Assembly: GCA_943350395.1 (NCBI GenBank)
Contig: CALRAD010000003.1
Span: forward strand, 45,044 to 109,043
Length of the DNA: 64,000 nt
From: Candidatus Peribacteria bacterium
GTDB taxonomy: Bacteria; Patescibacteriota; Gracilibacteria; Peribacterales; Peribacteraceae
Direction: 5' to 3'
This document shows positions 44,764 through 61,089 of this stretch, in pieces. How positions within the stretch are numbered: the stretch's first letter is position 1; the number at the start of each line of letters is the position of its first letter. Both the position numbers and the translations under genes were made by a program. The notes below the pieces were generated by a model that was not told the origin of the DNA, searched no databases, and saw nothing but the letters and a program-made list of their open reading frames with translations.

Positions 44764-44832
44764 CAGGGGATTGTAGCCTTGTATCAGGATGCAGATGTTC
44801 TCAGGTGTCTATTTCTTTTGATTGCTTTTAGG

Positions 44833-44848
44833 GTGTACGAGTGTACAC
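44833..44848. promoter_or_regulatory. Palindromic operator GTGTAC-GAGT-GTACAC, candidate LexA/SOS-type site
   Basis: Perfect 6-bp arms with N4 spacer, same arms and spacing as the site upstream of recA. Confidence 0.65.
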
Positions 44849-44855
44849 TCATGAC

Positions 44856-45116
44856 ATGACGATGACTTCGCGGATTCCACAGGCTCTCGACCGCAAGAAG
44901 ATGATTCTCGACTGCAGAGACATGAACTTCGATATTCCCTCCTCCGAAGGAATCGCGGACTCCGTGATCGCCTGGGTCATGAGTTTTCCGCAGAGGAATG
45001 CGATGCATGTGTATCTCCCCTCCTCCGCTCCTTCGGTGCGCAGGCTCCAGTGCACGCTGCAGGGCCTCGGATGCGCCGTTTCCCGTGTAACAAAATGTCT
45101 TCCGTCCCGTTTATAA
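44856..45116 (+). CDS. Hypothetical protein, 86 aa, downstream of candidate SOS operator
   Basis: MTMTSRIPQALDRKKMILDCRDMNFDIPSSEG...; tracked start 44841 (GTG) lies inside the operator. Confidence 0.6.
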   Translation: MTMTSRIPQALDRKKMILDCRDMNFDIPSSEGIADSVIAWVMSFPQRNAMHVYLPSSAPSVRRLQCTLQGLGCAVSRVTKCLPSRL

Positions 45117-45122
45117 GATCCA

Positions 45123-45221
45123 ATGTCAAAAAAAGCGTACACCGCCGTCGGCAAAGCATTTCTCCTCTCAGCGGCCCTCGTGTCCGCACCGGCGCTGATG
45201 CTCAGGTTTTGGGTGATGTAG
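45123..45221 (+). CDS. Single-TM microprotein (32 aa), family member 1
   Basis: MSKKAYTAVGKAFLLSAALVSAPALMLRFWVM; 14/32 ungapped identities to the 45881 microprotein; starts 6 nt after the upstream stop. Confidence 0.55.
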   Translation: MSKKAYTAVGKAFLLSAALVSAPALMLRFWVM

Positions 45222-45282: not shown

Positions 45283-45654
45283 ATGAAGCGCAATCATCAG
45301 TATTGGATTTACATGCTGCAATGCAGTGATGGGACGTATTACACGGGAGTGACAAATAACATCGAACGTCGATTCGCTGAGCATCAGAACGGTTTGCATG
45401 TTGAATCGTATACGTTTATGCGCAGGCCTTTATGTTTGGTCTATGCTTCTGAGTTTCAGTATGTTCAGGATGCGATCTCTGCAGAGAAACGACTGAAGAA
45501 ATGGAGTCATGCGAAGAAGCAGGCTGTTATTGATGGCAGGCTCGAATTGTTACCGGATTTGGCGAGGAAAGACTTCTCGATACGCTCCGCTGCGGCGGAG
45601 CTACTCGAAGTGACACAAATCAGTACGCCCTTGCGGTGGGGCTACTCGAAGTGA
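45283..45654 (+). CDS. GIY-YIG nuclease superfamily protein
   Basis: 'YWIYMLQCSDGTYYTGVTNNIERRFAEHQNG...PLCLVYASEF...AEKRLKKWSHAKKQAVI'; C-terminal tail encoded by repeat R1. Confidence 0.93.
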   Translation: MKRNHQYWIYMLQCSDGTYYTGVTNNIERRFAEHQNGLHVESYTFMRRPLCLVYASEFQYVQDAISAEKRLKKWSHAKKQAVIDGRLELLPDLARKDFSIRSAAAELLEVTQISTPLRWGYSK

Positions 45655-45722
45655 CACAGTCATAGGTGTCTCAGTTGTGTCAGTTCGAGTAGCCCCGAGC
45701 CTCTGCGAGGGCGTATCGAGAA
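45574..45722 (+). repeat. Palindromic repeat family R1, copy B (with internal duplication)
   Basis: TTCTCGATACG...CGTATCGAGAA; CTACTCGAAGTGACACA occurs twice (45601 and 45643). Confidence 0.85.
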
Positions 45723-57875: not shown

Positions 57876-58976
57876 CTAAATTGCACTCGCCTTCATATAC
57901 GCTTCTCGAATCTCTTTCTCGAGCTTCTCAGCGAGTTTTGCATGCTCTTTCAGGTACTGGCGTGCCATTTCCCGTCCCTGTCCGATCGTTTCTTCTCCGT
58001 GACGGAAGTAAGCACCGGATTTCTCGATGATTCCGTATTTCACTCCAAGATCGAGGATGTCTCCTTCTTTCGAGATTCCCTGTCCGTAGAGGATGTCGAA
58101 CTCTGCTTGCCTGAACGGCGGAGCGATCTTATTTTTGACAACTTTCACGCGTGTGCGGTTGCCGACAATGGTTTGTTCATCGGCACCTTTTTCGGTGATC
58201 TTGTCGATTCTGCGGACGTCCAATCGGAGTGAAGCGTAAAACTTGAGTGCGTTGCCGCCCGTTGTGGTTTCGGGATTGCCGAACATTACACCGATCTTCA
58301 TGCGCATCTGGTTGATGAAGACGACCGAGCAGTTTGTTTTGCTGACGATGGACGTAAGCTTTCGCAGTGCTTGGCTCATGAGGCGCGCCTGCAGACCCAT
58401 GTGGCTGTCGCCCATCATTCCTTCGATCTCGGCTCGTGGGGTGAGGGCTGCAACGGAGTCGATGACGATGATGTCAATGCCGCCGGACCGAACAAGTGTT
58501 TCGGTGATTTCAAGTGCCTGCTCGCCGTCATCGGGCTGAGAGACAAACAGATTGTCGATGTCGACACCAATTCTCTTGGCATATTGAATATCGAGTGCAT
58601 GCTCCGCGTCGATGAAGGCGGCTCTGCCTCCCCTCTTCTGGATCTGCGCGATTGCATGCAACGCAAGCGTTGTTTTGCCGGAGGATTCCGGACCGAAAAT
58701 TTCGATGATTCGACCGGTAGGAATGCCACCACCGAGGGCGAGATCGAGGCTGATACTGCCGCTGTGGTATGTATCGATTTGAACCATCTGTGCTTTGCCC
58801 ATATTCATGATGGCGCCTGCTCCGTACTGTTTTTCGATGTCTGCGATTGCGGCTTTGAGAGCATCAGTCTTCGCATTATCAAGTGCCGTTGCGACCTTGC
58901 CTTCTTTCGTCGCGGCAGGTTTTTGTACAGGTGTGACTGCTGCTACTGCGTCTATCGGGTTTGTCTGTTTCGTCAT
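57876..58976 (-). CDS. recA: Recombinase A
   Basis: '[41 protein letters not shown]', '[38 protein letters not shown]'. Confidence 0.98.
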
Positions 58977-59000: not shown

Positions 59001-59016
59001 GTGTACGAACGTTCAC
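59001..59016. promoter_or_regulatory. Proximal recA operator GTGTAC-GAAC-GTTCAC (one mismatch from consensus)
   Basis: Same arms/spacer as 44833-44848 and 59084-59099, one mismatched position; 25 bp upstream of recA start. Confidence 0.6.
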
Positions 59017-59083: not shown

Positions 59084-59099
59084 GTGTACAATTGTACAC
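59084..59099. promoter_or_regulatory. Distal recA operator GTGTAC-AATT-GTACAC
   Basis: Perfect palindrome, extended to GGTGTACAATTGTACACC at 59083-59100. Confidence 0.65.
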
Positions 59100-59988: not shown

Positions 59989-61089
59989 CTATTTCTTCTT
60001 GCTTGCATCGAAGTCGTATACCGCACGACCGACACGGACGAAGTACGGCATCTTCTGGAGGTTCAAGCTGATCGTGCCGACTTTCACGGTGCGCTGCTTG
60101 CTGACCTCCTCGATGATTTGCTTCTTCGAGAGAGCTCCTTTCTCCTTGAGGATCGTCTCGATGACATCGGCAACCGTACCTGGCTCGAAGCCCCACTCAC
60201 GCAGTGCGTAGAGACCTCTGCCGACGAGGACGAATTGCGGATAGCGGATGAGTTCGTTATGGACGGCTTGGACGGTGACGTTCTTGTGGTCGAAGTGAGC
60301 TTCTCTGATTTGGTTCGCGATCTCCATGAAATGGAGAGGGTGTCCGATCTTCTTGAGAACGATCTCGACTTTGTCGCGGATCGAACGAGGACGCACGAAA
60401 CGCCACTCGGTAAGTCCCCAGCCTTCAGCAATCTCTTTCAGACGTTCATCGATTGCGAGACAGCTCGTAATAAGTTCTTGCGATGGTACGCGTCCTTGGA
60501 ATGCAGGCATCGCCTGGATGGAACTGATGAGCTCGACAGCTTTCATGCATGAGTGACGCTTGTTGAGGAACTTCACTCCCATGTCGACGATCGTCGAAAT
60601 GTCCTCAAGTCCGAGGTTCGAGAGTCTCCAGAACGGCTTATAGGTCATGCTGTGACCTTCGGATGCCATCTCGGTATCGATGGCAAAACTGAGACGAAGC
60701 ACCGTACCGTCGATCACTTCTGAGCCCGGCAAACGCTTGAGAACCGTCGAGACGAGTTCGGAAGAAAGCATGAGTCCGCCGTGGGTACGGAGAATCCCCT
60801 TCGCGATCTCGTTTACCTCGTTGAGTCGTGTGGTTCGAACCGTTCTCTTGAGCTTGCTTAAGGCAATGCTCTCGATCTGACGAATGCGCTCCCTCGTCAC
60901 GTTGAAGTGTTTACCGATTTTCTCGAGTGTCTGTTTTCCCTGACCCGTCAACGCAAACCGACGCTTGATGACTTCGGTTTCCTTCTGCGTGAGTACGAGG
61001 AACAAATCGCCGAGAAGATCCTGCAAATTCAGATTCAGTTGGGACTTCTGTGCGGCGTTTTGTGAACCTTGGGCGGTTGAGGGAGACAT
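59989..61089 (-). CDS. Sigma-70 region 4 HTH fused to HARE-like (RpoE-delta type) HTH domains
   Basis: 'LTQKETEVIKRRFALTGQGKQTLEKIGKHFNVTRERIRQIESIALSKLKR' region 4; 'IGHPLHFMEIANQIREAHFDHKNVTVQAVHNELIRYPQFVLVGRGLYALREWGFEPGTVADVI' HARE-like. Confidence 0.85.
   Translation of the reverse strand: MSPSTAQGSQNAAQKSQLNLNLQDLLGDLFLVLTQKETEVIKRRFALTGQGKQTLEKIGKHFNVTRERIRQIESIALSKLKRTVRTTRLNEVNEIAKGILRTHGGLMLSSELVSTVLKRLPGSEVIDGTVLRLSFAIDTEMASEGHSMTYKPFWRLSNLGLEDISTIVDMGVKFLNKRHSCMKAVELISSIQAMPAFQGRVPSQELITSCLAIDERLKEIAEGWGLTEWRFVRPRSIRDKVEIVLKKIGHPLHFMEIANQIREAHFDHKNVTVQAVHNELIRYPQFVLVGRGLYALREWGFEPGTVADVIETILKEKGALSKKQIIEEVSKQRTVKVGTISLNLQKMPYFVRVGRAVYDFDASKKK

What the first reader, a model, noticed from the sequence alone, without database searches (positions are those of the whole stretch)
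44833..45221. The recA-type operator recurs at a small two-gene unit encoding an 86-aa protein and a 32-aa TM microprotein
GTGTAC-GAGT-GTACAC at 44833-44848 has exactly the arms and spacing of the distal recA site. It overlaps the start region of an 86-aa ORF, with a possible TTGATT-N18-TGTACA promoter in which the operator covers the -10. Six nt after that ORF stops, a 32-aa ORF encodes MSKKAYTAVGKAFLLSAALVSAPALMLRFWVM. SOS-induced single-TM peptides that inhibit division are established (Caulobacter SidA, B. subtilis YneA), so this is a candidate DNA-damage checkpoint module in a CPR-like genome. The microprotein is below the 60-aa cutoff of the supplied ORF track.
Basis: partly seen in the sequence, partly recalled or inferred. 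Interest (0 to 1): 0.85.

Follow-up and report, generated by a model that had tools for sequence, protein, structure and literature searches.

The report
SOS-controlled small-protein operon in Peribacteria
A family of tiny uncultured bacteria carries a gene, apparently switched on by DNA damage, for a small, previously unnamed protein, often followed by a 32-residue membrane peptide that also has a second, stress-type promoter of its own, which points to an unknown way these cells respond to damage.

Summary

The box is the LexA operator of this lineage (Candidatus Peribacteraceae, Patescibacteria). It precedes lexA, recA, ssb, comM, recG and dinB genes and occurs in 73 of 74 genomes of the order. 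The 86-aa protein is a new family: 55 of 74 genomes, none found outside the family. All 30 loci examined keep the operator, 7-10 nt before the start codon in 27. The operator is fused to the -10 element (TTGNNN-N17-TACACT), so the mRNA is probably leaderless.

The 32-aa single-TM protein is also real (pN/pS 0.2-0.6) and is linked to the 86-aa gene in 23 of 32 genomes that have it. However, where it stands alone it has no LexA box (0 of 7 examined). It carries its own ECF-sigma-type promoter, TGTAAC-N16-CGTT (24 of 30 loci; 0.08 expected). The same motif follows the gene of a conserved ECF sigma factor in 27 of 30 genomes.

So the dedicated SOS product is the 86-aa protein. The microprotein looks primarily like an ECF-regulon membrane peptide that receives SOS read-through. 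Division inhibition remains untested; the 86-aa function is unknown.

The parts
44822..44827 (+). -35-like hexamer TTGCTT (family consensus TTGNNN, 16-17 nt from TACACT)
   Evidence: TTG within about 16 nt upstream of the box in 28 of 30 homologous loci
44833..44848 (+). LexA operator GTGTACGAGTGTACAC
   Evidence: same box at recA, lexA, ssb, comM
44844..44849 (+). -10-like hexamer TACACT, formed by the last five bases of the operator plus an invariant T
   Evidence: T after the box in 30 of 30 loci
44856..45116 (+). 86-aa protein, new Peribacteraceae family, predicted beta-alpha-beta-alpha-beta
45086..45111 (+). ECF-sigma-type promoter TGTAAC-N16-CGTT inside the 3' end of the 86-aa gene, ending 11 nt before the microprotein start codon
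45123..45221 (+). 32-aa single-TM microprotein
59084..59099 (+). LexA operator upstream of recA, distal, exact
59001..59016 (+). LexA operator upstream of recA, proximal, one mismatch
57876..58976 (-). recA
   Evidence: PF00154 E 6e-134

Best explanation
44833-45221 is an SOS transcription unit of Candidatus Peribacteraceae. Without damage, LexA bound to GTGTACN4GTACAC covers the spacer and -10 of a sigma-70-type promoter. RecA-triggered LexA self-cleavage frees it, and a probably leaderless mRNA starts at or next to the ATG of an 86-aa cytoplasmic alpha/beta protein, the dedicated SOS product and founder of a new family. The mRNA runs on into a 32-aa single-TM microprotein. The microprotein also has its own promoter, TGTAAC-N16-CGTT, of the type found behind a conserved ECF sigma factor gene, so DNA damage and an ECF (presumably envelope) signal meet on one membrane peptide where the genes are adjacent. 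Shown: operators, gene families, conservation, selection, promoter motifs. Inferred: LexA binding, induction, leaderless start, recognition by that ECF sigma. Functional guess: the 86-aa protein is a cytosolic SOS effector that tunes RecA/LexA or arrests the cell cycle (about 0.5 together); the microprotein binds an envelope or divisome membrane protein (about 0.4).
For: LexA with HTH and S24 domains, TIGR00498 above cut-off, and a one-mismatch box before lexA itself. Boxes before recA, ssb, comM in this genome and before comM (14), ssb (9), 23S-IVP-type (3), recG, lexA, recA (2 each) and dinB (1) among 55 fetched regions of relatives. Box in 73/74 genomes of the order, 57/57 good ones; reversed control pattern about 8 times in all. 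86-aa profile in 55/74 genomes of the order, none outside the family in the class sample. Box in 30/30 examined loci, 27 of them 7-10 nt before the start codon, invariant T after it. 86-aa gene directly upstream of recA in G011, G018, G056. pN/pS 0.10-0.26 (86-aa) and 0.20-0.56 (microprotein). ECF motif before 24/30 microprotein genes against 0.08 in shuffles, including 5 of 7 unlinked ones in a slightly looser form, and after 27/30 orthologues of the ECF sigma gene. No terminator found between the two genes.
Against: No LexA-binding, transcript or protein data. About a fifth of good genomes lack a detectable 86-aa homologue, so it is not essential to SOS in the family. The ECF promoter match in the window overlaps coding sequence (R-V-T-K codons), and exact matches are not enriched genome-wide (4 against 6 control). 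In three loci the first in-frame ATG/GTG/TTG is 34-42 nt after the box, so leaderless initiation is not universal.
Confidence: 0.72

Rival explanations
1. One reading: the unit is a SidA/YneA-type checkpoint in which the SOS-induced 32-aa TM peptide blocks the late divisome (FtsW/FtsI).
For: Single TM helix, short N-terminal tail, conserved small residues (G10, S16), placed behind an SOS gene in 23 genomes. SidA is a 29-aa inner-membrane SOS protein acting on FtsW (PMC4211646).
Against: In 9 of 32 genomes the peptide is away from the 86-aa gene; the 7 loci examined have no LexA box, 5 of them an ECF-type promoter. More than half of the genomes with the SOS gene have no adjacent copy. A dedicated SOS inhibitor should keep the operator.
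Confidence: 0.15
2. The 86-aa protein is a RecA/LexA-pathway modulator (works like DinI or RecX): SOS-induced, binds RecA filaments and sets the length of the response; the microprotein is a separate ECF gene that happens to be adjacent.
For: Operator retained in 30/30 loci; gene directly upstream of recA in three genomes; small soluble alpha/beta protein.
Against: No sequence or fold match to DinI or RecX; adjacency to recA in few genomes only.
Confidence: 0.3
3. The 86-aa protein is the cytosolic division inhibitor (works like SulA, acting on FtsZ or another early division protein).
For: A consistently operator-linked non-repair gene of the regulon in this family; in E. coli that niche is held by SulA (general knowledge).
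Against: No similarity to SulA (hhalign probability 0.4 percent); no direct evidence.
Confidence: 0.2
4. The 86-aa protein is a reduced STAS-like partner-switching protein that links SOS to sigma-factor or membrane-transport control.
For: Profile search of PDB sequences has STAS proteins (MlaB-type, named anti-sigma factor antagonist) at rank 1 and among the few others, E 0.006-0.01 for the best; predicted order beta-alpha-beta-alpha-beta is compatible with the STAS core.
Against: Domain-level E-values about 0.5; no STAS entry among the 50 listed Foldseek hits of either model, best E 0.09-0.13; no hhalign support against E. coli MlaB.
Confidence: 0.1

Closest known systems
SidA (Caulobacter SOS division inhibitor)
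   Same: LexA-linked tiny single-TM protein, about 30 residues
   Different: No sequence relation was tested; here the peptide is the second gene behind a conserved 86-aa gene, has its own ECF-type promoter, and has no LexA box when unlinked
YneA / SosA (Firmicutes SOS division inhibitors)
   Same: SOS-controlled small membrane protein
   Different: From general knowledge these are longer proteins with an extracellular part; the Peribacteraceae peptide has almost none
LexA regulon of Patescibacteria (Sanchez-Osuna, Barbe, Erill 2017, Environ Microbiol 19:3465)
   Same: LexA-controlled DNA-damage network in the same superphylum; the operator may be described there
   Different: The paper is not held (known here only through citations), so whether it names this box or the 86-aa gene could not be checked
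ECF sigma regulons with TGTAAC/CGT-type promoters (for example B. subtilis SigX, from general knowledge)
   Same: AAC motif at -35, CGT at -10, 16-nt spacer, sigma gene next to one of its own promoters
   Different: One target here is a TM microprotein embedded behind an SOS gene; the downstream partner of the sigma is a DUF5667 protein

Membership tests
LexA/SOS regulon | LexA homologue with HTH and S24 peptidase domains in the genome | tested here: met
LexA/SOS regulon | Same operator at lexA and recA and at this gene | tested here: met
LexA/SOS regulon | Operator conserved upstream of orthologues | tested here: met
   30 of 30 loci, 28 exact, one with 1 and one with 2 mismatches; further loci
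LexA/SOS regulon | LexA binding and induction by DNA damage | not testable with these tools
   needs EMSA and transcript data
SidA/YneA-type division inhibitor (32-aa peptide) | Small single-TM protein | tested here: met
   (hydropathy only)
SidA/YneA-type division inhibitor (32-aa peptide) | Its own expression controlled by LexA | tested here: inconclusive
   Read-through from the LexA promoter expected where linked; 0 of 7 unlinked loci have a box
SidA/YneA-type division inhibitor (32-aa peptide) | Blocks division, contacts FtsW/FtsI/FtsN | not testable with these tools
   needs expression and interaction assays
ECF sigma regulon (32-aa peptide) | Promoter motif shared with the sigma factor's own locus | tested here: met
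ECF sigma regulon (32-aa peptide) | Transcription by that sigma factor | not testable with these tools
   needs in vitro transcription
SulA (86-aa protein) | Sequence/profile similarity | tested here: not met
DinI (86-aa protein) | Sequence/profile similarity | tested here: not met
STAS domain (86-aa protein) | Significant profile or fold match | tested here: inconclusive
   weak PDB profile hits, no listed fold match, no hhalign support

The most novel reading that the evidence does not exclude
Peribacteraceae use a damage checkpoint of a kind not described: a leaderless, LexA-controlled 86-aa effector of a new protein family, coupled on one transcript to a TM microprotein that is independently switched on by an ECF sigma factor, so that DNA damage and envelope stress converge on one membrane target.
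Probability: 0.3. Interest if true: 0.8.

Novelty: new variant of a known kind. Interest (0 to 1): 0.62.

Why it matters
SOS effectors other than repair enzymes are mostly known from a few model phyla, and CPR bacteria are rarely open to genetics. This gives one family of CPR bacteria a concrete SOS regulon with a dedicated small-protein effector of unknown relationship, a second single-TM microprotein below usual annotation cut-offs, and a testable link between LexA and an ECF sigma factor. Both proteins are short enough for immediate expression tests in E. coli.

Tried and rejected
Family scans of 30 homologues of the 86-aa protein against Pfam, NCBIfam and PHROGs: only scattered single-member weak hits. 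hhalign against E. coli MlaB, SulA, DinI, BssS and IbaG: nothing (single-sequence targets, so weak tests). Two AlphaFold models (pLDDT 78 and 72) with Foldseek against the PDB: best E 0.13 and 0.09, all partial Rossmann-like matches. Rfam at the locus: nothing. Phage records: no relative of the 86-aa protein. An early reading that '-' strand hits lacked the box was an orientation error of mine, corrected. The A1 alignment was too divergent for the search for related loci; a subset worked. The 2017 Patescibacteria LexA paper is not held.

Full report
Observation. The box GTGTACGAGTGTACAC is at 44833-44848, the 86-aa ORF at 44856-45116 and the 32-aa ORF at 45123-45221. In the whole 1.25-Mb genome the exact pattern GTGTACN4GTACAC occurs three times and the reversed control never; the three sites lie upstream of the 86-aa gene, recA (59084-59099) and a ComM/YifB-type Mg-chelatase-like ATPase. 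At two mismatches the genome-wide count no longer exceeds the control (28 against 35), so only exact and one-mismatch sites are used below.

The box is a LexA operator. The genome encodes a LexA (202 aa, HTH plus S24, TIGR00498 above cut-off) and a one-mismatch box lies just upstream of lexA; further one-mismatch boxes lie at recA (proximal), at a double-SSB gene and at an ORF6N-domain gene. Across the order the exact box is present in 73 of 74 genomes (57 of 57 good ones), about three per genome, against about eight control matches in all. In 55 fetched box regions of relatives the downstream genes include comM (14), ssb (9), 23S-rRNA-IVP-type four-helix proteins (3), lexA, recA, recG (2 each) and dinB (1); 21 were left unclassified, among them what look like RmuC and DNA methyltransferase genes. 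Named relatives are Candidatus Peribacteria/Peribacteraceae.

The 86-aa protein. A profile finds it in 55 of 74 genomes of the order (47 of 57 good ones) and in none of the genomes outside the family in a class sample of 288. Alignment: invariant D19, L68, G72, C73, V75 and a pattern VVIDWS...LL.WV...P...IHVYLPS......R.LQ..LQ.LGCTVT.R. pN/pS among the three closest genomes is 0.10-0.26. All 30 loci examined have the box (28 exact), 27 of them 7-10 nt before the start codon; the box is preceded by G and followed by T in all 30, and a TTG lies about 17 nt before TACACT in most. TTGNNN-N17-TACACT is a sigma-70-type promoter whose -10 is the distal operator arm plus T; the expected start site falls on or beside the ATG, so the mRNA is probably leaderless (inference). 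In three loci the first in-frame start is 34-42 nt away. In G011, G018 and G056 the gene sits directly upstream of recA, and G031 has a second copy with its own box.

Fold. AlphaFold with 14 homologues gives beta-alpha-beta-alpha-beta at pLDDT 78, pTM 0.62; a second member gives the same order at lower confidence. Foldseek finds no significant match. Pfam, NCBIfam and PHROGs give nothing consistent. A profile search of PDB sequences puts STAS proteins of the MlaB type first, at E 0.006-0.01 but domain E about 0.5; this is a lead, not an assignment.

The 32-aa protein. Its alignment reads roughly MS+DTR.xGxAFLLS..LV.AAA..P.LL with G10 and S16 invariant, one hydrophobic stretch (Kyte-Doolittle 19-residue maximum 1.7-2.4), and pN/pS 0.20-0.56 between the window's copy and four relatives. 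A profile finds it at E of 1e-5 or better in 32 genomes of the order, and nowhere else in the class sample. In 23 of these it lies just behind the 86-aa gene; in 9 it does not. Of the 7 unlinked loci fetched none has a LexA box (at most one mismatch within 700 nt, at most three within 120 nt). Thus the operator belongs to the 86-aa gene.

A second promoter. Upstream of 24 of 30 microprotein genes, mostly starting 35-54 nt before the start codon, stands [TCG]GTAA[CG]-N16/17-CGT[TC]; dinucleotide shuffles give 0.08 on average and 2 at most. Five of the seven unlinked genes have it, one of them with a looser final base. In the window it is TGTAACAAAATGTCTTCCGTCCCGTT at 45086-45111. Exact matches are not enriched genome-wide (4 against 6 control), but one of the four stands 51 nt behind the stop of an ECF sigma gene; in 27 of 30 relatives the same motif follows the orthologous sigma gene, often overlapping its stop codon, and precedes a 440-484-aa protein, with a DUF5667 domain in this genome. 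This is the layout of an autoregulated ECF locus. That the sigma factor reads this promoter is inferred from motif sharing; the pattern was noticed in the data before it was tested, so the shuffle figure is descriptive.

Reading. In the window the genes are 6 nt apart with no terminator between, so SOS transcription should reach the microprotein, and the ECF-type promoter adds a second input. The SOS-specific product is the 86-aa protein. What it does is not shown: RecA/LexA modulation and division arrest are the main candidates. The SidA comparison (29-aa inner-membrane SOS protein acting on FtsW, PMC4211646) is a fair analogy for size and membrane topology only.

Prior art. A 2017 paper on the Patescibacteria DNA-damage network exists (cited in PMC8565304 and PMC7739468) but is not held; it may already list the operator. 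Full-text searches for LexA with Peregrinibacteria, or SOS with Peribacteria, found nothing.

Noticed in passing
L022, L025, L028 (downstream of the 86-aa gene): A second kind of 22-24-aa TM micro-ORF (MTFFILLIGILSLVWLLQHMLQSE and similar) follows the 86-aa gene in three genomes, overlapping its stop codon in L025.
   Followed up: partly
L020 and L021, about 80-200 nt downstream of the 86-aa gene: A 40-aa TM micro-ORF MRSNLYIPG...NVFLPAVLLVTAMLVLLFAF is shared by the two genomes in place of the usual microprotein.
   Followed up: no
L042, L043, L094: The 86-aa gene is directly upstream of recA in three genomes.
   Followed up: partly
L224 (G031:C1:598922): A second, divergent 86-aa-family gene in the same genome, again with an exact box.
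   Followed up: no
L178, L179, L218, L230: What look like DNA methyltransferase genes lie close behind exact LexA boxes in several relatives, suggesting SOS-controlled modification or restriction genes.
   Followed up: no
window 59989-61089 (-): Protein combining a sigma-70 region 4 with a HARE-HTH domain near recA.
   Followed up: no
G000:C2:126188-126784 and the gene behind it (L233): Conserved ECF sigma factor followed by a protein with a DUF5667 domain, with the TGTAAC-N16-CGTT motif between them in 27 of 30 genomes.
   Followed up: partly
window 45595-45710: Short direct and inverted copies of CTACTCGAAGTGACACA in and after the end of the GIY-YIG gene (45283-45654).
   Followed up: no
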